From NCBI GenBank assembly GCA_020086605.1, contig JACBWW010000015.1, forward strand, positions 8,365,251-8,429,250: DNA of 64,000 nt, in the 5' to 3' direction. Source of the DNA: Lanius collurio. Lineage: Eukaryota; Chordata; Aves; Passeriformes; Laniidae. Position 1 is the stretch's first letter; every line of letters begins with the position of its first letter. The notes beneath the pieces are model-generated. The model did no database searches and was not told the origin of the DNA. It worked only from the letters and a program-made list of their open reading frames with translations. Made by a program: the position numbers and the translations under genes. Positions 1-54,336 of this stretch are shown here, piece after piece.

Positions 1-3000
1 CTGCAAATGCCAAAAGCTTGTTAGCTTACTATTGATGTTTCTTGTTTCTGTCTAAAGACACTTGTGCAGTCTTTTTTTTTTTCTTTTTTTTTTTTAGTGT
101 TTTCTGTGCAGCACTAGACACCTGTCAGATATGTTCTGGTCTATGTCTGAATTGAAAAGCATGCCAGAAACTGTTCCCATGATATAAACTATTATGTTTC
201 CAGAGCTGTATTTTTTTCAGGCCTGTGCTTTAATTTTGATACATTTCTGAATATAATTTATTTAATAGCTACAGTAGCAATGAAGGATGACATATGTGTG
301 GTAAAAATTAAATTTATGATGAAGAAACATACACAGTCTCCAGTGAATACATTTTAGATTCATTTGACAGCCACTAAATCACACAGGGAGTAGAAATTAA
401 TTCATTAAGACGTTTTACTTCTGACAATGTGCCTGTGGGAAATGGATTAATAATACAAATGGATGCTACTTAGAAAGTACTCCTGCAATCAGAACTAAGG
501 GAAGTGAAGTACTGAAAATAAGAAAAGACAACACTAAGTTGTCATTATTTAAATTTCCTAATCATCTTTGCTGTAAGAAATCCTGGAAGGCTAATTGTAA
601 GAAGAAATCTTAAAACTTCTCTGTATGTCTGAATCAAGCAGCTAGATCAGATATTTTTATTCTTTTTTTTTTTTATATTTCTCTCCTAATGTGTCCCAGT
701 TTACATTTGTCGAATGAATGGGCATAGTGGCTACCATATTGAGCAGACTAAAGTGAAATAAAGAGGGCAGAGGATTGGACCAGCAGGTTTACCATAAATT
801 GAACCGAGAAGGTTAAAACTGCTGTTGCCTTGCCATGTCTCTTCTCTGTCCCTCCCTGTTTACCATTCCTAGACTGGGACTGCCAAATGGCACATTTGCT
901 CAATGCAATATAATCATAGGACAAATTACAGCCAGGGAAATGCTGTGTGTGCTAAATTCTCTTTCAAAGCACAAACTGGAGCAATTCAAGGCAAGATATG
1001 TCATGTTCTTGCTGGGGTTTTTTTTTTGAAACCGTCAAGAGTATCATGATGTATCTTGCATTGTAAAGTGTACCCAGTGCTAAATGAATTCCTTTGAATT
1101 AAAATTGTGGGTATATTGTAGTATGTTCCATGAGTTTTAGGATATTCTGTAACCCATTGCTGGAATATGAAAAGTTTGCTTGCCTTTCTCTTCTATTATT
1201 ATTCATAGATTTAGAGACTGAGATTCTTAAAAAGGACATCTGAGGTTTTATGTGGCTTTTTTCTTTCTTCTAGATCTTTCGGTCTGTGTCCATTGGCTTA
1301 ATAGCACTTCTGGTTTACTCATATGGCTGAAAGAGGTATGAACTTAAAGGTGATGTGTTTTCATAGGGATTTATTGATTTGTTTATATTTTTATTTTTGT
1401 TTTGAAAAGGAAAACCAATTAGATCAGTGGCGAGCAAGTCAATAATTGTTCTCCATGAATATGAAATAACTGCATTCCTGAAGGACATTTGCCAATTCTT
1501 TATTGAAATACTGTGTTATCTCTAGATCATCTTCATATATCAGAGAGCAAAAATTAAAGATAGAAGCATGATATGAAGCTTTTAAATATTTTCCCTTGTA
1601 AAAGTGATAGTTCCAGTTCATACACTCCGAGAAAAGATTAAAACAAACCAGCCAGCTGCTATTGATGGAGTCGAGAAGGACTGTCCAGTGATGAAGAAGA
1701 CAAATGAACATTTGGAAAGTATGGGCTTGGGTGCTGCACATCACAGATGCTTTTGGGTAGCTTGACATAATTTAGTTTTCCATAAGTAAGATTAAAACTC
1801 AGTGAGGAATATTGCATGGATAAACACTGAACTTGTATGGTTTCCATGTCTGATAGTAACCTAATAAATACCTCATAACAGAAAAAACAATTTTAATAAT
1901 TTAGGTGCACTGATTTTCATAACTGTCACAGTCTTTGGAAGGTGTATAGCTGTGATTCTGTTATTGTTCTTTTATGGTCTCTATAAAACATACTTGTCCA
2001 TTCAAAGCTACATCTAAAATATCACAATTATTGTGTGTTTGATTTTTTTCTAACAGTCCAAATAAAGTTATTGATCTCCTAGAGATGAGTAGCAACACAA
2101 GATCAACCCACTACACTGTTTAAATCCAACTCATTTTCCTCCAGTTCTAGGAGAGTAAGTGGGTGTTTGAGCTGATTTAGGGGTCAACGTTTTTGAGATA
2201 TTTTAGTATAGAGTTGGCACAAAGGTTGTCTCTGGAAAACTTCTTGGCTACCCAAAGAACAAAATACACTCTTCTGCTGGTTAATGAACTGGTGGGGTAA
2301 AAGCACCACGTAATGTCGAGTTTTTGAATGAACAATTTCTAGTTAACCCTAATTAAGAGAGATGGCTCTGTGGTAGCATGTGTGCAAATTCATTGTTCTC
2401 ACTCATGCTGACCAATTCAATAGCAAGCAGATACTGACCTTCAAGGAATTTTCCAGTGAGCCTTAATTTTACAGGCTTCAGGAAATGAAGAAAACTGGAT
2501 TTTTTTTTTAAGTGTTAGTCTGGTTTCTTTCAGGGGAAGGGTATATCTAGTCATTTTAATCAAATAATATCTAGTTTCACGCAGTGCTTTTCATGACTTT
2601 CACAGGAATTTTGCAAAAGGTATTACTATTATTTTTGTCCTTATATAGCTGTAGCAACTAAGGAAAATGCAGGCATTGCAACTTTCCCAAAGTTCGTTGG
2701 TTAGGAACAGTAGATCTGGAAATAGAATGAGGGTATCTATCTCTGTGTATGTTTAAGAACTCGTATAACAAAAATTACATTGTTATATATAGTAAATACG
2801 GATAAAGTAATTTTTTTTTTTAAAGTAACTTTTTATGTCTTAAATTTTTTTAAACACCTTTCAAAGATTCATAACTTTAACATTAAGCAGCTCAGATGGG
2901 TATTGCCCTTAGTGTATAGATGGAATTATATGGAACAAGATGTGAGAATGTCAGTGCTTGGGATGTGAAAATTTATCATTATGTAAGTAAGATAAAAAGC

Positions 3001-3421
3001 CAGTAACTCTCTGTATGGGGTTTTTCTTTGGTTACAATACTATTTTATTATTTATTCCAAAAACTTGAAAAAAGTATTTCATAACCTCCCAAAAGCACCT
3101 CCCAAAAGCACATAAAGGAAGAAATAAGTCTGTTCAGAAATTTTAGGTTGGTCAATAGAGAAGAATGGACTGTAGAAGAAGGAACTTTCCCAGTCCTTTT
3201 CTAATTCTACGTGTGGCAGACATACTTCCCCTGTAGAAATGACAATCTGATACCGTCAGAAGTATCAACAGCCAATGAGCAAAGCTGTGTGTCAACCTGT
3301 TGTGCCAACCAGCTGTCTGACAGACTTCTGGTTCCAGTGAGTGACCTGAGAGAAGGGCTGACAGCTGCACAGGAGGCAGGAGAGAAAGAAAGAATGAAAG
3401 CACAAGGTGCTTCTGTCATAC
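1..3421 (-). other. ANXA10: ANXA10 intron 3 (partial), no exon recognised
   Basis: This stretch follows the splice donor of ANXA10 exon 3 in the direction of transcription, so it should be the start of intron 3. I looked on the minus strand for the next annexin exon and did not find it. The short open frames show no protein family I recognise. T-rich runs lie near 69-98 and 661-674, and a short direct repeat (CCTCCCAAAAGCA, twice) at about 3085-3112. Nothing else stands out. Confidence 0.6.
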
Positions 3422-3516
3422 CCTGCCGTACATGTCTCTGTATGCCTCAGCAATCATGAGCCGCTGTGAGTTGCAACGCTGAGTTAGGATATCAATCAAC
3501 ACATCTTTTTCACAAC
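3422..3516 (-). CDS. ANXA10: ANXA10 exon 3 (annexin A10, repeat 1 part)
   Basis: Exon 3 of annexin A10, a calcium- and phospholipid-binding family member expressed mainly in stomach epithelium in mammals. On the minus strand it starts after the acceptor TTTTCAG (3517-3518 is the AG) and ends before the donor GTATGA (3416-3421). The 95 nt consist of two bases that complete the codon split with exon 2, then 31 codons ending in MYGR. The piece includes ILTQRCN and MIAEAY, the helix pattern of annexin repeat 1, and closely matches remembered human ANXA10. A 95-nt exon at this place is usual for annexins. The canonical type II calcium loop (GxGTD) is missing: the junction with exon 2 reads GISCEKD. 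This agrees with the known loss of calcium sites in ANXA10. No stop or frameshift is seen. Confidence 0.93.
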
Positions 3517-33992: not shown

Positions 33993-34912
33993 GGCTTTGT
34001 CTTGGTTTGAAAAGACAGATGTCTGTTAAGGAAGACAGGAGCCTCCCTTGAAGTGAAGGATGCAACCCCCTTCTCTCTGAATTATTATAATTTTGAAATT
34101 AAGGGGCTTTCAGGCAAAGATACAAAAAATAGTTCTTTACTAAAATACAGATATATAAACAGGCAAACAAACAACAATAACTACAGTGGTGACAGCAAAC
34201 AGAACCACAAACCCAGTGCAGCCTCTCTCGGCTGTCAGGCCCTTTCCCCTCTGGTGCAGTTCCAGTCACAGCCGGCAGGGGCGCTGGCGGCTCCCGGTGA
34301 GCAGGGCAGGTGCGATGGTTCCCCCGCGGCTGCAGGGGGCGCTCCGGAGCGAGCTCGGGGAGCACGCAGTGATGGCGGCTTGGGATCCGGGAAAGGGATG
34401 AAAGAAAGGCTTCACAAACCTCCCTGGGCAGCTCATCCTGGAGTCTGTCCGGGCTCTCCTGTCCAGGCAGGCTGGGGCAGCAGTAGGAGCACAAATTCCG
34501 GGTGGCAGGCGAGATGTATCGAGCTGCAGAGCTGTGGTAGGAAATCCCTGGAGGTCTGGGCAGGCAGGACGGGCAGGGCTGCAGAGCAGCGAAGGCTGAG
34601 GCAGCAGGGTCTGCAGCTCAGCTCCCAGCGAGGCAGGGAAGGACAGGTTTGGGATCCCGGGGTTTCTCCAGCAGAGAGGAAAAACGGCAGGAAACCCACA
34701 GTGCTGGCAAGAGTGGTCTGCCTGTCTCCACACCAAGTCCCGAGTGCCCAGCACACACCCAGGTGAGGACAGTAGCCCCAGATGGGCTCCTCCCCTCCGT
34801 GGCCAGTTCTTTTGTTTCTCCCAAGTACCCAGTCATTTGTTGTCTCGGTAACATATATGGGAGAAAATTCCTCAAGGGAAAAAAAGGCAACTCCCCAAAC
34901 TCCATCAGGCTT
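33993..34912 (-). mobile_element. Solo LTR, ERVL-like family, copy 1, 5-bp target duplication
   Basis: A 910-bp LTR (33998-34907) is bounded by perfect 5-bp repeats GGCTT (33993-33997 and 34908-34912). It starts TGTCTTGG and ends CATCA on the plus strand. The minus strand is taken as sense because it gives a long GC-rich U3, then a TTTATATAT element near 34150, then an AT-rich R-U5 ending CCAAGACA. The 237-codon plus-strand frame and the overlapping minus frames here are by-products of the GC-rich U3, not genes. A second copy of the same LTR is at 43731-44659. Five-base duplications fit ERVL/class III integration. Confidence 0.88.
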
Positions 34913-40113: not shown

Positions 40114-40119
40114 CAGATG

Positions 40120-40412
40120 TGTGGAGGCATCTCTCCCCTGAAGTCCCGTGGGAAGGACCCTGCAGTGTACGAGTCTGTCCCTGTCCCTGTCCCCGTGTCA
40201 CGTGTGCCCCATACCTGTTCCTGATTCGGTGGTTTGGGGACCCAGGGCCTGGGAAGAGAGCAGGGTCTCATGACTGGAGAGTCTGCCTGGAAACTCCAGC
40301 CATACGGCTGGAGGAATAAATCATCTCTGAACATCTATAAAAATATCACATCATCTTTCCTTCCAAGTTCATCGCTATCTTATACTTGTTGTAAGGATTC
40401 CCCATTACAACA
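40120..40412 (+). repeat. 5' LTR of the Y-box provirus
   Basis: A 293-bp LTR starting TGTGGAGGCATC and ending CATTACAACA. It holds AATAAA at 40315-40320 about 90 bp before its end, and a short tandem CCCTGT run near 40180-40195. It aligns throughout with the 3' LTR at 42109-42396, which lacks six of the CCCTGT-run bases. The ATAAAAATAT stretch lies downstream of AATAAA, so it is not the promoter TATA. Confidence 0.9.
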
Positions 40413-40414
40413 AA

Positions 40415-40432
40415 TGGTGGAGAATGCTGGCA
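40415..40432 (+). other. Primer binding site, tRNA-Ala-like
   Basis: Two bases after the 5' LTR the sequence reads TGGTGGAGAATGCTGG. Avian and mammalian tRNA-Ala 3' ends predict TGGTGGAGATGCCGGGG, so the match is good apart from one inserted A and a substitution. Its place directly after the LTR is where a minus-strand primer site must be. Lys, Pro, Trp and Leu primer sites fit much worse. Confidence 0.65.
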
Positions 40433-40518
40433 AACGATCCCTGGAGAAGGTAATTTGGTGATTTGTGAGTAAACTCTGGATATCTCTTCTTGTTTTTGTT
40501 CTGCTGTCCCATCTCTGA

Positions 40519-40857
40519 ATGATGGAGGACTCATGGAAAGACTCATGGCTGTCTGAACCACAAAGAGACATTTACCTTAAACTTAAAACGGTTCTTGAAC
40601 AGTGATATGTAGATTTTAACTTAATTCAAGCTCAAAAAGAACTAAGACACTTCCTGGCATGGCTGTTTAAAAACTTCTTCTACATTTTTTGGGATTTTAT
40701 TCTTACCAAGGACTTTTGGGAGAATGTTTGGACACAGTTAATTTCTGAATCAAAAAATATGCCAGTGCAAGACTATTTCCATGAATATTACCTGATTACA
40801 GAGACTGTTGAGCAATATCGGCTGTGTCCCACTGCTGTTCTAGCAGCAAACACATGA
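40519..40857 (+). pseudogene. gag matrix-like N-terminal fragment (ERVK-type)
   Basis: An open frame starts at ATGATG (40519), has one in-frame TGA at 40603-40605, and runs on to a TGA at 40855-40857 (113 codons). Its composition fits a betaretrovirus-type matrix domain: a short N-terminus, amphipathic helices, clustered Trp, Leu and Lys, and a DFWENVW pattern in the middle. This is family-style recognition and not an alignment. Capsid and nucleocapsid are absent; GC-rich sequence of a different character follows at once. The frame equals that of the N-terminal Y-box segment downstream. Confidence 0.6.
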
Positions 40858-41876
40858 TCAAGCAGCGTGCAGGTTGCAGCAGGCTCTTCCATTGTCCTGG
40901 AGACCACGCGGCCCTGGCTGCGGGCGCCCAGTGCATTGCGGGTGGCGGTGAGGGAGCTCCTGCACGTGGGAGAGCCAGCGAAGCCAGGCACGGCGGGAGC
41001 GGTGCTGGCAGTGAGAGCGGTGGTGGCAGGAGTTGGAGCCAGGAGCAGCGCAGGCCCGGCGGTGTTCACCCTGAGATACGTGAGTGGCACAGTGGTGCTG
41101 CGAGGGGAAGCCACATAGGGCTGCCGGGGCAGCCCAGTTAACGGGACGATGCAGCGTGGGGCAGCGCCAAGACCGAGTAGCCATTTGGGAACCTGGTAGA
41201 GGCAGTGGCGTGCGGGCTGGGGCCAGAGGCAGCAGAGGAGCTGGCAGAGCGAAGTGGAGTGGCACGGCCTGGCCCAGCCCACGCAGCCCCGAAGGCAGCC
41301 CCGAGGAGTCGAAACCCTGGGACAGGAATGCGCTGGAGGCCCTGGCCCTGGCGGTACCAGCTGCAGCAGCTCCAGCGTGAGAGTGAGCAAAACCAAAAGT
41401 GAAAGCAAGAACACAGCAACACGGAAACATGAAAAGGTTATCGCAGCTAAGGTTTTTGGAACTGTAAAATGGTATAAAGAAAAATTACAGTTTTTGGAAC
41501 TGTAAAATGGTATAACGTAAAGAAAAATTACAGTTTCTTATTGAGAATTGATACAGGAGAAAGTAATTTTGTCCATAAACCTGCTATTGTAAAAAATAAC
41601 CCAAAAAGTAATGTTCTAAGCTTAGAAGAAGGAGAAAGGGTGGAGTTTAAAATTGTGCAAGGAGGAAAGGGACCACAGGCAGCATGTGTTACAGGCCCTG
41701 GGGGTGTTCCTGTGAAAGGTAGTAGATATGCTAGACAATATCCCCATAATCCCTATCCTTTTCCCTATCCCACCTTCCACTTTAATCCTGTGCCCCTTTA
41801 TTCCCCATATATCCCCTCAGAAAACCATGCATTTCCATTTGCCATTAACCCCTTTGCAATGCCGATGGGGGGATGA
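40858..41876 (+). pseudogene. Captured Y-box (cold-shock domain) gene, intronless, disrupted
   Basis: Y-box proteins are RNA- and DNA-binding factors with an Ala/Gly/Pro-rich N-terminus and one cold-shock domain. Here a GC-rich segment (about 40858-41400) leads to KVIAAKVFGTVKWY, then RNP1-like KKNYSFLLR, RNP2-like NFVHK (FVH at 41568-41576), a PAIVKNNP segment, and the Y-box signature TGPGGVPV (41691-41714). The Trp, Phe, Phe and His that stack on RNA in the family are present. After the domain comes a Tyr/Pro/Phe-rich tail instead of the usual alternating basic and acidic clusters, ending at TGA 41874-41876. Disruptions are TAG at 41116 and 41197, and an offset tandem duplication at 41453-41533 that shifts the frame. 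Host Y-box genes split this domain over several exons; here it is continuous, implying capture from spliced RNA. Confidence 0.88.
41453..41533 (+). repeat. Tandem duplication (38-bp offset) inside the cold-shock domain
   Basis: The unit TTTTTGGAACTG...AAAAATTACAG occurs at 41453-41490 and again at 41491-41533. The first copy lacks five bases (CGTAA) that the second has. The second copy keeps the frame into the rest of the domain. The first leads to TAA at 41503-41505, so the duplication breaks the gene. Confidence 0.95.
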
Positions 41877-42108
41877 AAAGGAGGGAGGGAAGAAATTGTC
41901 ATTTTTTAAGATTCCAACAGGTACAGAAAGGAAAAAACCTCCTGACTGAGTTTCCATCTGAAGCGTGCTTAAGGCTTGTCTCCCTTTTGATACTCCAAAG
42001 AAAATCTGTTTGGACATCTGGGGACTCAAGATAGTGGCTTCTTTTCTTTTGAAAATGTTTTGTTGTTTATCCAACTGTTCCCAATGTTCTTTTATTTCAG
42101 AAAAAGGG

Positions 42109-42396
42109 TGAATTGGGGAGGTGCCTCTCCCCTGAAATCCTGGGGGGAGGGACCCTGCAGTGTACGGGTCTGTCCCTGTCCCCATGTCATGTGTGCCCCA
42201 TGTCTGTTCCTGGTTGGGTGGTTTTGAGTGCCTGGGCCCGGGCAGAAAGCAGGGTCCGGTGACTGGGGTCTGCCTGGGAACTCCATCCATGCGGCTGGAG
42301 GAATAAATCATCTCTGAACATCTATAGAAATATCGCTTCATCTTTCCTTCCAAGTCCATCGCTATCTTATACTTGTAAGGATTCCCCACTACAACA
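42109..42396 (+). repeat. 3' LTR of the Y-box provirus
   Basis: A 288-bp LTR after the purine tract AAAAAGGG. It starts TGAATTGGGGAGG, has AATAAA at 42302-42307, and ends CCACTACAACA directly before the CAGATG target duplication. It is the partner of 40120-40412. The start is the least certain point, because the two LTRs differ in their first 15 bases. Confidence 0.88.
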
Positions 42397-42402
42397 CAGA
42401 TG

Positions 42403-43725: not shown

Positions 43726-44664
43726 CAGGTTGTCTTGGTTTGAAAAGACAGATGTCTGTTAAGGAAGACAGGAGCCTCCCTTGAGGTGAAGGATGCAACC
43801 CCCTTCTTTCTGAATTATTATAAATTTGAAATTAAGGGGCTTTCAGGCAAAGATATAAGGAATAGGAATAACAGTTCTTTACTAAAATACAGATATATAA
43901 ACAGGCAAACAAACAACAATAACTATACTGGTGACAACAAACAGAAGCACAAACCCAGTGCAGCCTCTCTCGGCTGTCAGGCCCTTTCCCTTTTGGTGCA
44001 GTTCCAGTCACAACCGGCAGGGGCGCTGGCGGCTCCCGGTGAGCAGGGCAGGTGCGATGGTTCCCCCGCGGCTGCAGGGGGCGCTCCGGAGCGAGCTCGG
44101 GGAGCACGGAGCAATGGCGGATTAGATCTCGGGAAAAAAAAAAGGATGGGAGAAAGGCTTCACAAACCTCCCTGGGCAGCTGATCCTGGGGTCTGTCCGG
44201 GCTCTCCTGTCCAGGCAGGCTGGAGCAGCAGTAGGAGCACAAATTCCGGGTGGCAGGCGAGATGTATCGAGCTGCGGAGCTGTGGTAGGAATCCCCGGAG
44301 GTCTCGGCAGGCAGGACGGGCAGGGCTGCAGAGTAGCGAAGGCTGAGGCAGCAGAATCTGAGCTGAGCTCCCAGCGAGGCAGGGAAAGGACAGGCTCTGG
44401 ATCCCGGGGTTTCTCCAGCAGAGAGGAAAAACGGCAGGAAAACCCGCAGTGCTGACGAGAGAGTCTCTCCCGTCTCCACACCAAGTCTCAGAGTGCTCAG
44501 CACACCCCAGGTGAGGACAGTAGCCCCAGATGGGCCCCTCCCCTCTGTGGCCAGTTCCTTTGTTTCTCTTGAGTACCCAGTCATTTGTTGACATGGTAAC
44601 ATAGTATGGGAGAAAATTCCTCGAGAGGAAATAAAAACAAAAACTCCCAAACCCCAACACAGGT
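43726..44664 (-). mobile_element. Solo LTR, ERVL-like family, copy 2, 5-bp target duplication
   Basis: A 929-bp LTR (43731-44659) with perfect 5-bp flanking repeats CAGGT (43726-43730 and 44660-44664). It matches the LTR at 33998-34907 along its whole length, with scattered substitutions and small indels, in the same orientation. The target duplications differ, so these are two independent insertions and not the ends of one provirus. The long open frames in both strands (up to 302 codons at 43832-44740) arise from the GC-rich U3 and run past the LTR end; they are not genes. Confidence 0.9.
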
Positions 44665-51893: not shown

Positions 51894-53799
51894 ATGATAA
51901 GACCTGCTGACACATCATCAAAAGATGGCAGGAAGACTTAAATAAGCAAGCCAAGCAAAAACCAGCAGGAAAAACTGCAAAATAAAATAATGTAAAAGAC
52001 TATTCCATATCAAGGAAGGGTAATTGAATTTGTGAATAGAAGGCAAACATTGCCCAGTTAAAAAAAAAAATGCTGAAATCAGGGATTCTTAAAAAACAGG
52101 ATACAGAATAAATCATCTGTCTTAAATTTCTGGCAGGAGAAATATTGTAAGGCATCTTTGGGAGAAGGCTTTTTCTATACAAAAAAGGCAACTTCAGATG
52201 AAATATTAATGAAATTACACAACAGAAAAGGAATAGAGTAAAAAAAGAGTAGTCACTGTTCTCTAGAAGTTTTTTCTTTGGAAGGATCTTGGCATTAAGA
52301 AAAAGCAACCAAAAAGGAGTATAAAATGTTCTTTTATTTCCAAATTGACAGGTAAAACAGAAAGATTACCTAACTAAAAGTTCTTAAAAATAAGAAAATT
52401 ACCTCATGTTATGCACTGTCTACTATTTTATTACATATAGCTATGCAACATCAATGTATGTGTAATTTATCCAAGAAAACATTGTATATAGTATGAGAAA
52501 ATTTAATACTGGCACTATATACAATATTATAATCAATTTAGAATACAAATTCTTGCCCTAAATAAGTAGAAAGACCGCAGTACAAGATTTTATGTGTGAC
52601 ATATATGTTTTAGAAAATCACTACCATTATTCTGGATGTCAGTGGTACCTTTTATTGGTGTTTTACTCCATGTTATATATTTTTTTTGGTGGCACTTTCA
52701 AAGTTATTTGAAATAAATTATTCTTGCAAGGAAAAGTTTCATAAATATTACATGATCAATATTTATCCGAGAATAGGTTTGCAGATTATTTTTCTGTTAT
52801 ATTTACTTTTGTGCACTTATGTTGCAAGTGATCATTATTAAAAGAAGTGATTAAAAGAGCTCAGGATTTGAAAAGAATCTCTGGGCAGTAGGACTTGTGA
52901 CTCTGTTTTCATTGTACTGCTTGCTATTGCCTAAGTGATAGACAGGGAGGATTTACTGAACAGTTTGCACAGAAATCCAACTCTATAGAAGCACCATTAA
53001 GGTCTTCCTGGGCAAGGTCAAGTATTATTTTCAGGAACACTCAAACACTGAGTAAAGGAGGGCGAATAAAACTAAGGAGAATAAGGGGTACAAACTATGG
53101 TCACATTTTGCATGGTCATCCAAGTTGCAATTACACGCAGTGAAACAGATAGTAGAATCATAAAATATTATATTGGCGTTTTTCTTCTCTTAATCTTTTT
53201 GGTACTTGGAGTTCTTAGAAAAATATTTCTATAAATGTTTCAAGATTTTCAACTGTCTGAGTAGAACTTATATGAATACTTTAAACTGAACTAGCTTAGA
53301 TGAACTACATAAATCACATCATGTATTTTAGCTCCTGTGAGAGAGACGAGTGTGATCCTTTCATCTTTGACTCTTTTGCCAGTGTGTGTACCTGTTGTGC
53401 ATATGTGGTCACATTTCAGTTTTGAGAAAAGTCTGCAATACATCATGTTTTCAGATCATTTCAAGTGTGTGTATCTATAGGAGAAAAGGAAAAATAGTGG
53501 AGTGCTGAACAGCTATGCAAATAAAATAATCATACTATTTACCCTCATGCTTATATCTTCCACCACATTGATTTCTCAGCTCATAAAGTTGAATCACTTC
53601 CATGCTAACTAGAGGTATGATTTGGGTTTGAACTCCTTAGAGCAGTTGTCGTTTTCTCCAGGTTAAATGAGAGAGCAGTTCAAAGCCCTTCTGTTTAATA
53701 ATTGGTAAATCAATGGAGGCTTCAGTCAGTACCATGAACGTGTGGACATCAACAGTGGAACAGAGGAAAGGATATGGCATGTGACTAAACAATTTTTGA
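51894..53799. other. Intergenic, nothing identified
   Basis: AT-rich sequence between the C run and the LTR. The 102-codon minus frame at 52000-52308 has no recognisable domain. Confidence 0.55.
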
Positions 53800-54336
53800 G
53801 ATAGTGTGCTGGTTTTGGCTGGGGTAGAATTAATTTTCTTCCCAGTGGCTGGTATGGGGCTGTGTTTTGGATTTGTGTTGAACACAGGGTTGATAACAGA
53901 AATATTCTTGTAATTGCTGAGCAGGGCTTGTACAAAGGCCTTTTCTGCCTTTCATTCTGCCATGCTGTGGGGGCAGGCGGGAGTGCATGGGAAGCTGGGA
54001 AGAGACAGCCAGAGCAGGTGACCCAAAGTGACCAAACGGGTATTCCAGACCAGATGACATCATGCTCAGTATATAAATTGTGGGGAAGGAGGAAGAAGGG
54101 AATGTTTGGAGTAATGATGCTCATCTTTCCAAATCACCATTATTCATGATAGAGCCCTTCTCTCCTGGAGATGTCTCTGCACCTGCCTGCCCATGGGAAG
54201 CAGTGAATTCATTCCTTGTTTTGCTTTGTTTGTGTGTGCAGCTTTTACTTTCCTAATTAGACTGGCTAAATCTCAGCCCACAATTTTACTACCTGTTACA
54301 TTTGGTTGCTGGCTGGGTTTAAACCACTACAGATGG
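53800..54336 (+). mobile_element. LTR of an avian ERVL-type retrovirus
   Basis: A 527-bp LTR at 53805-54331 begins TGTGCTGGTTTTGGCTGGGG and ends GGGTTTAAACCACTACA, both diagnostic of a widespread avian ERVL LTR. A TATA box (TATATAAA) lies near 54070. The flanks GATAG (53800-53804) and GATGG (54332-54336) agree at four of five bases, consistent with an aged 5-bp target duplication and a solo LTR. The sequence after the LTR (GATGGTGGAGAAGTGG) also resembles two bases plus a primer binding site, so a truncated provirus is an alternative. Confidence 0.87.

What the first reader, a model, noticed from the sequence alone, without database searches (positions are those of the whole stretch)
40114..42402. 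Endogenous retrovirus that has captured a cellular Y-box (cold-shock domain) gene
Between two matching LTRs with a perfect 6-bp target duplication lie a primer site, a short gag start and a Y-box protein coding sequence, with no pol or env. This is the layout of acute transducing retroviruses, where a host gene replaces most of the viral genome. The captured family here, an RNA-binding Y-box protein, is not one I know from any described retrovirus or LTR element. Y-box proteins package mRNA and affect translation, so a cargo of this type could have influenced packaging or expression of the element's own RNA. That function is inference.
Basis: partly seen in the sequence, partly recalled or inferred. 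Interest (0 to 1): 0.9.

Follow-up and report, generated by a model that had tools for sequence, protein, structure and literature searches.

The report
Retrovirus-like family carrying a Y-box gene
This genome, probably a bird's, holds hundreds of copies of a retrovirus-like element that likely picked up a spliced copy of the host's own Y-box RNA-binding gene, and the pattern of changes among copies indicates that the borrowed protein sequence was kept while the element spread, so the element may have depended on it.

Summary
It has two LTRs (40120-40412, 42114-42396), a perfect 6-bp target duplication and a cold-shock domain (Pfam E 7.7e-16; nearest structures are Y-box proteins). No pol or env was found. 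In the same genome the LTR/primer-site junction occurs 810 times (reversed control 20), and 8 of 10 sampled junctions carry the Y-box. So the Y-box is a standing part of the element, not a pseudogene nested in one copy. It is continuous where host YBX1 has introns, so an mRNA source is likely. Older subfamilies share derived residues, favouring one capture. In 46 copies, variants shared by several copies concentrate at third codon positions of the Y-box frame, private ones do not (one-sided P 1e-4), and a neighbouring non-coding stretch shows no such bias. Between subfamilies dN/dS is 0.15-0.47 in the domain and 0.5-1.0 in the gag-position piece, though dS is near saturation. Proposed role (inferred): a protein that binds the element's own RNA, with enzymes from a helper. 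Not shown: helper, expression, gag identity, in-frame fusion, species, parent paralogue.

The parts
40114..40119 (.). target-site duplication, left copy (CAGATG)
   Evidence: 6-bp perfect in 9 of 13 copies tested, 0 of 156 mismatched pairs reach 5/6
40120..40412 (+). 5' LTR
40415..40431 (+). primer-binding site, predicted (tRNA-Ala-like; tRNA letters recalled)
   Evidence: one search lists the same stretch in other copies; LTR/primer-site junction found 810 times genome-wide, control 20
40519..40854 (+). gag-position (matrix-like) reading frame, one stop inside at 40603-40605; identity as matrix likely, unproven
   Evidence: no profile or fold match
40855..41424 (+). GC-rich linker between gag-position piece and Y-box; open toward the Y-box in some other copies
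41425..41502 (+). first residues of the Y-box domain in frame 2 (KHEKVIAAKVFGTVKWY...), broken by the duplication
41452..41527 (+). 38-bp tandem duplication that shifts the frame
   Evidence: family D5
41490..41735 (+). Y-box cold-shock domain, residues 1-82 of the open segment
   Evidence: Pfam CSD; PDB Y-box 1/2
41736..41876 (+). aromatic/proline-rich tail and stop, not like the charged tail of cellular Y-box proteins
41877..42113 (+). element-specific 3' non-coding stretch, in 20 of 20 copies fetched by the Y-box; ends in a purine-rich tract (predicted polypurine tract 42100-42113)
42114..42396 (+). 3' LTR
42397..42402 (.). target-site duplication, right copy (CAGATG)

Best explanation
This is one decayed copy of a family of hundreds of short retrovirus-like elements whose founder likely captured a spliced host Y-box mRNA, and whose captured cold-shock domain shows the mark of purifying selection on its protein sequence during the spread of the family. 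Shown: LTR pairs, 6-bp target duplications, copy number, the Y-box in copies found without using it, internal regions of only 1.3-2.0 kb in 17 copies, a continuous domain where host YBX1 has introns, older subfamilies with shared derived residues, and a third-position bias in the Y-box frame that a neighbouring non-coding stretch lacks. Inferred: capture by recombination between a retroviral RNA and a co-packaged Y-box mRNA; mobilisation in trans by enzymes of another retrovirus in the genome; translation as a fusion behind a gag-type N-terminus; and the work of the protein, which I take to be binding the element's own RNA (stabilising it or helping its packaging and reverse transcription), in the way that cellular YB-1 is a cofactor of known retroviruses.
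For: Family: loose first-look candidates genome-wide 986 (Y-box), 754 (linker), 694 (gag piece), 3274 (LTR), 40 scored in each; 810 LTR/primer-site junctions vs 20 in the reversed control. Y-box at 8 of 10 sampled junctions, 4 of 4 linker-anchored loci, 7 of 8 gag-anchored loci (the window's own copy is one in each set, and L035/L036 are probably one place assembled twice), the eighth with a Y-box start behind an insertion. Internal regions 1320-2000 bp in 17 copies. mRNA origin: host YBX1 exons split at 1262-1297 / 3387-3476 / 3691-3888 of L060, continuous in the copies. One origin: nine positions where no copy in a hand-picked set (3 older, 4 younger) keeps the host residue, three of them (37, 39, 45) with one residue in all seven. 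Selection: 46 copies, private variants by codon position 98/90/65, variants in 4 or more copies 14/12/29, one-sided Fisher P 1.2e-4; the other four thresholds tried give 0.007 to 1.2e-4; CpG columns removed 79/77/55 vs 10/9/22, P 6e-4; non-coding control flat, smallest P 0.15. Single-change codons: private 189 replacement, 16 stop, 36 silent; shared by 4 or more 18 replacement, 0 stop, 26 silent. Domain dN/dS older vs younger copies 0.15-0.47; gag-position piece 0.52-1.01 for L062/L063 vs younger. Base-stacking residues (recalled) kept: F85 46, F74 45, H87 42, W65 40 of 46. Cofactor precedent: PMC6040738 abstract and passages.
Against: No expression or protein data. No helper with matching LTRs was found: 0 of the 6 reverse-transcriptase hits on contigs C1-C3 lies within 10 kb of any of the 100 junctions listed, but both lists are capped. 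The gag-position piece has no profile match and shows no third-position bias in 19 copies, so the fusion itself is not shown to be selected. With transversions alone the third-position excess is not significant (P 0.12-0.47). The excess comes from the domain (shared 8/7/22); the tail shows none (6/5/7). The dN/dS contrast rests largely on dS, which is near saturation in the domain (0.97-2.07); dN differs less, 0.27-0.35 in the domain against 0.41-0.47 in the gag-position piece. The RNP-1 stretch differs from cellular Y-box proteins at several residues (KKNYSFLLR against RNGYGFINR). Parent paralogue unresolved.
Confidence: 0.72

Rival explanations
1. Nested insertion: a Y-box processed pseudogene landed inside one ordinary retrovirus copy.
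For: The Y-box part is intronless, as a processed pseudogene would be.
Against: Independently integrated copies share the Y-box and the same flanking 3' stretch; three older-subfamily loci have it too; no A-run above 6 and no exact repeat of 8 or more at the joints examined.
Confidence: 0.02
2. Passive passenger: the Y-box was captured once and simply copied along, useful only as filler or spacing.
For: In 11 of the 21 copies compared the Y-box stretch itself holds a stop or a frame break; the tail shows no third-position excess.
Against: Third-position excess among shared variants, absent among private variants and in the non-coding control; low dN/dS between subfamilies.
Confidence: 0.1
3. 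Selection acted on RNA or DNA signals inside the Y-box sequence (for example a packaging signal), not on the protein.
For: Retroviral packaging signals can extend into coding sequence (recalled).
Against: An RNA signal does not predict a phase of three; the excess is at third codon positions only, and replacement changes are depleted among shared variants.
Confidence: 0.06
4. Same capture history, other last step: the protein acts on the host, for example by competing with cellular Y-box proteins that mask germline mRNA, so that element RNA is translated or escapes silencing.
For: The RNA-contact residues are mostly kept while the C-terminal tail is unlike that of cellular Y-box proteins, a make-up that could bind RNA without recruiting the same partners.
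Against: No direct evidence either way; it would act on all RNAs alike, a weaker advantage to the element (inference).
Confidence: 0.2

Closest known systems
Acute transducing retroviruses with gag-host fusions (recalled)
   Same: LTRs, gag-position start, host-derived coding sequence from a spliced mRNA, pol and env missing, helper needed
   Different: Those are recent isolates with growth-control genes (recalled); this is an old, high-copy genomic family with subfamilies and an RNA-binding cargo, and its gag label and helper are unproven
Crocodilian retroviruses that captured KIT-ligand and nectin3 (PMC4299795, passages read)
   Same: Host mRNA captured by an endogenous retrovirus, several copies, purifying selection reported by the authors
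   Different: There the cargo is a ligand or surface protein in elements that keep other retroviral genes (KIT-ligand without loss of a domain, nectin3 in place of env), with nine copies with an open frame and six insertions described; here no pol or env is seen, the cargo is an RNA-binding domain, and copies number in the hundreds
Cellular Y-box proteins YBX1/YBX2/YBX3
   Same: Cold-shock domain with the base-stacking residues (recalled) kept in most copies
   Different: The compared stretch of up to 65 residues is 51-69% identical to host YBX1 in 13 copies; the charged C-terminal tail is replaced by an aromatic/proline-rich one
YB-1 as a cellular cofactor of retroviruses (PMC6040738, abstract and passages)
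   Same: A Y-box protein aids retroviral RNA and particle production; the paper cites MLV-vector and MMTV production as regulated by YB-1
   Different: There the protein is supplied by the host cell; here the element encodes its own
ERV2/ERVK-type songbird LTR elements (criteria from PMC6523648, passages)
   Same: 6-bp target duplication, TG...CA ends
   Different: No pol seen, so not placed by phylogeny; 'Y-box' does not occur in that paper's main text

Membership tests
ERV2/ERVK-type LTR element | 6-bp target-site duplication and TG...CA LTR ends | tested here: met
   6 of 6 identical in 9 of 13 copies, at least 5 of 6 in 11 of 13; control 0 of 156. Five of 18 LTR pairs were left out (four with cut or shifted ends, and L016, which shows no clear duplication); with L016 it is 11 of 14. 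LTR ends
ERV2/ERVK-type LTR element | pol phylogeny within class II | not testable with these tools
   No pol seen in the element; no helper identified
Retroviral gag (matrix) | Match to a gag/matrix profile or fold | tested here: not met
   No Pfam match at E 1, no PDB sequence match at E 10, no Foldseek match; position and a helical single-sequence model are the only support
Transducing retrovirus layout | Host-derived, spliced coding sequence between the LTRs, with pol/env missing | tested here: met
Transducing retrovirus layout | Cargo fused in frame to gag | tested here: inconclusive
   In L016 two adjacent segments in one frame, separated by one stop, run from the gag-position start into the Y-box domain; in the window copy the frames are broken; open segments around the domain range from 54 to 509 aa among the 150 scored matches
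Transducing retrovirus layout | Spread by a helper virus | tested here: inconclusive
   Reverse-transcriptase genes with long open frames exist in the genome; 0 of 6 on C1-C3 near a listed junction, both lists capped
Y-box protein (cold-shock domain) | Pfam CSD above cut-off and Y-box proteins as nearest structures | tested here: met
Y-box protein (cold-shock domain) | Basic/acidic C-terminal tail | tested here: not met
   Aromatic/proline-rich tail instead, by reading the translations
Processed pseudogene nested in an ERV | Own poly(A) and target duplication, absent from other copies | tested here: not met

The most novel reading that the evidence does not exclude
The element replaced a retrovirus's nucleocapsid with a host Y-box domain: a two-part 'mini-Gag' (gag-type N-terminus plus cold-shock domain) that picks the element's own RNA out of the cell and carries it into a helper's particles, so that a parasite of retroviruses has lived, perhaps for tens of millions of years, on a borrowed host RNA chaperone.
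Probability: 0.25. Interest if true: 0.93.

Novelty: new variant of a known kind. Interest (0 to 1): 0.82.

Why it matters
The well-known captures of host genes by retroviruses are mostly isolated events with growth or surface genes (recalled). Here a captured RNA-binding gene sits in a family of hundreds of copies with several subfamilies, and its domain is the better-kept of the two coding stretches compared. That makes a question testable: can a host RNA chaperone stand in for, or add to, a retroviral one? It also gives a natural experiment on why retroviruses recruit cellular YB-1, and a series of copies of different age from which to see which residues of a Y-box domain such an element keeps.

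Tried and rejected
Homologous-protein search with the Y-box piece: one candidate, none scored; that database seems to hold few or no vertebrate proteins, so I did not spend the other two searches. Two scans of viral contigs (Y-box, gag piece): pattern matches but no confirmed relative. Rfam at gathering score: none. Structure model of the Y-box piece: pLDDT 34.9, not used. Foldseek with the gag-position model: no match. Helper search by Pfam RVT_1: 150 scored hits, none of the 6 on C1-C3 near a listed junction. Parent paralogue: three positions favour YBX1 and two favour YBX2, left open. A count of Y-box sites by a DNA pattern did not complete. Seven paper searches aimed at a Y-box or other host cargo in retroviral or bird elements showed no report of a Y-box cargo; two searches listed only 20 of 135 and 15 of 287 papers; two more searches were on YB-1 as a cofactor. 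Subscription papers, repeat libraries and supplements were not searched. Ages in years come from no call: LTR K2P of 18 pairs is 0.041-0.195 (L013 on 158 columns only); with a recalled bird rate of 2-3 per 1e9 sites per year this would be roughly 7-50 million years.
Full report
What is in the window. The element spans 40120-42396. Its LTRs are 293 and 283 bp and differ at 35 of 282 aligned columns (K2P 0.137). CAGATG stands on both sides. After the 5' LTR come a primer-site-like stretch, a matrix-like reading frame at 40519-40854 with one stop, a GC-rich stretch of about 550 bp (62-73% GC per 60-bp bin, against 25-50% inside the element on either side), a Y-box part up to the stop at 41874-41876, and 237 bp of non-coding sequence before the 3' LTR. 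In seven stop-free pieces Pfam finds only the cold-shock domain above a cut-off (E 7.7e-16), and the nearest solved chains are Y-box proteins 1 and 2 (E 8e-27, 1.3e-26). This copy is broken: a 38-bp tandem duplication shifts the Y-box frame, and stops lie in the gag-position and linker frames.

It is a family. The window's own assembly is held (1.097 Gb, unnamed). The Y-box piece has 986 loose first-look candidates, of which 40 were scored, 84-100% identical. The linker has 754, the gag-position piece 694 and the LTR 3274. The LTR-end/primer-site junction with at most one mismatch occurs 406 + 404 times, the reversed control 9 + 11. Of 20 copies fetched by the Y-box, 20 have the same 3' stretch and a 3' LTR, and 17 have at least part of a 5' LTR within the fetched stretch; the internal regions of these 17 measure 1320-2000 bp, too short for pol and env. 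Because those were found by the Y-box, I also anchored elsewhere. Linker-anchored loci: 4 of 4 with Y-box, one being the window itself. Gag-anchored loci: 7 of 8, one being the window itself, one the same copy as L026, and two (L035, L036) probably one place assembled twice; the eighth has an insertion and then a Y-box start. Junction-anchored loci, every tenth of the 100 listed places (exact matches on contigs C1-C3): 8 of 10 with Y-box at the expected distance, one with linker only, one without a match. Target duplications are 6 bp: perfect in 9 of 13, at least 5 of 6 in 11 of 13, none of 156 mismatched pairs. Of 18 LTR pairs, L013, L017, L022 and L024 were left out of this count because an end is cut or shifted, and L016 because no duplication was clear; with L016 it is 11 of 14.

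Two gag-position types and older subfamilies. Of the 20 fetched copies, ten share the window's gag-position piece, seven carry a second type, and three were not classed; the two types are about 30% identical in protein where compared. L016 and L027 have the window's type joined to the longer linker of the second type, so the 5' part has probably been exchanged by recombination (inferred). In L016 two adjacent segments of one frame, with one stop between, run from the gag-position start through the linker into the Y-box domain. This is the basis for proposing a fusion protein; in many other copies the frames are broken. Three loci chosen from the best matches to a host-like Y-box peptide are older subfamilies: two have clear LTR pairs of 87.8% and 84.9% identity and the third has LTR-end matches on both sides; they are 70-75% identical to one another in their main stretches and carry the second gag-position type. 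Their domain is closer to host YBX1 (66-69% over the compared stretch) than that of ten younger copies (51-62%).

Origin. Host YBX1 was located by its C-terminal exons and domain exons were read from L060: they are separated by introns of about 2.1 kb and 0.2 kb. The copies are continuous across these points, so the source was most likely a spliced Y-box mRNA. At nine positions no copy of a hand-picked set (three older, four younger) keeps the residue of YBX1 and YBX2, and at three of them (37, 39, 45 of the compared stretch) all seven share the same new one, which favours one capture. Which paralogue was captured is open: positions 17, 47 and, in two of three older copies, 23 agree with YBX1, whereas 58 and 61 agree with YBX2 in several copies; dS to host YBX1 is saturated (1.3 to undefined), and YBX3 was not compared.

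Selection. Variants present in one copy mostly arose after insertion; variants present in many copies mostly arose while the family was replicating. A first look at 21 copies gave private 59/62/48 and shared by three or more 11/7/18 at codon positions 1/2/3. In 46 copies (dropped: L035 and L036 as partial, L040 as a duplicate, repeated loci of the window; L039 has no match) private variants fall 98/90/65 and variants in four or more copies 14/12/29 (one-sided Fisher P 1.2e-4; thresholds 2, 3, 5 and 7 give 0.007, 4e-4, 1.2e-4 and 9e-4). Without CpG-touching columns it is 79/77/55 and 10/9/22 (P 6e-4). Transversions alone give 57/45/41 and 3/4/6, not significant (P 0.16). The excess sits in the domain (shared 8/7/22), not in the tail (6/5/7). 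The adjacent non-coding stretch in 45 copies shows no phase (smallest P 0.15), and the gag-position piece in 19 copies shows none either. Between older and younger copies the domain has dN/dS 0.30-0.47 (L061), 0.15-0.23 (L062) and 0.25-0.33 (L063); the second-type gag-position piece has 0.71-1.01 (L062) and 0.52-0.75 (L063) (L061 and L009 dropped there because gapped). Much of that contrast lies in dS, which is near saturation in the domain (0.97-2.07 for L062 and L063) and lower in the gag-position piece (0.42-0.80); dN is 0.27-0.35 against 0.41-0.47. L062 against L063 gives 0.81 for the domain and 1.24 for the gag-position piece, as expected if most of their differences arose after insertion. 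So the captured domain was the better-kept of the two. Residues recalled to stack on RNA bases in YB-1 are kept in the aligned column: W65 40, F74 45, F85 46, H87 42 of 46.

How it likely works. Inferred chain: a retrovirus of the 6-bp-duplication type recombined with a co-packaged Y-box mRNA; the product lost pol and env and was copied by enzymes of other elements, the genome holding many reverse-transcriptase genes with long open frames (150 scored hits); its protein, probably with a gag-type N-terminus, bound the element's RNA. The precedent is that cellular YB-1 supports retroviral RNA levels and particle output (abstract and passages of PMC6040738, which also cite MLV-vector and MMTV production). 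The result against a fusion with a working matrix is the loose constraint on the gag-position piece; the result against calling that piece gag is the lack of any profile or fold match; and no helper was linked to these LTRs.

Known or new. Gene capture by retroviruses is known, including endogenous cases in crocodilians (PMC4299795, passages). I saw no report of a Y-box cargo in seven searches of the open-access library aimed at it (long lists capped); repeat libraries were not available, so the family may already have a repeat name. I file it as a new variant of a known kind: a capture that founded a high-copy, non-autonomous family with signs of selection on an RNA-binding cargo.

Noticed in passing
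window 33997-34907 and 43730-44659: A second pair of direct repeats, about 0.92 kb, 90.6% identical, on either side of the Y-box element; related sequence also occurs in L022 and, in short pieces, L011. Could be two insertions of one repeat family or the ends of a larger element.
   Followed up: partly
window 53799-54278: Stretch 68-71% identical to stretches in L023 and L024, probably another old repeat.
   Followed up: no
L062, L063 versus younger copies: dS in the gag-position piece (0.42-0.80) is lower than dS in the Y-box domain for the same kinds of pairs (0.97-2.07); exchange of the 5' part between subfamilies, or composition, could explain it.
   Followed up: no
L035 and L036 (contigs C46 and C45): Two copies with the same internal match identities on contigs C46 and C45, and mirrored pairs of hits on these contigs; likely the same place assembled twice.
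   Followed up: no
L039 about 2250-3270: Sequence unrelated to the element, with an A-run, sits between the linker and the Y-box start of one copy.
   Followed up: no
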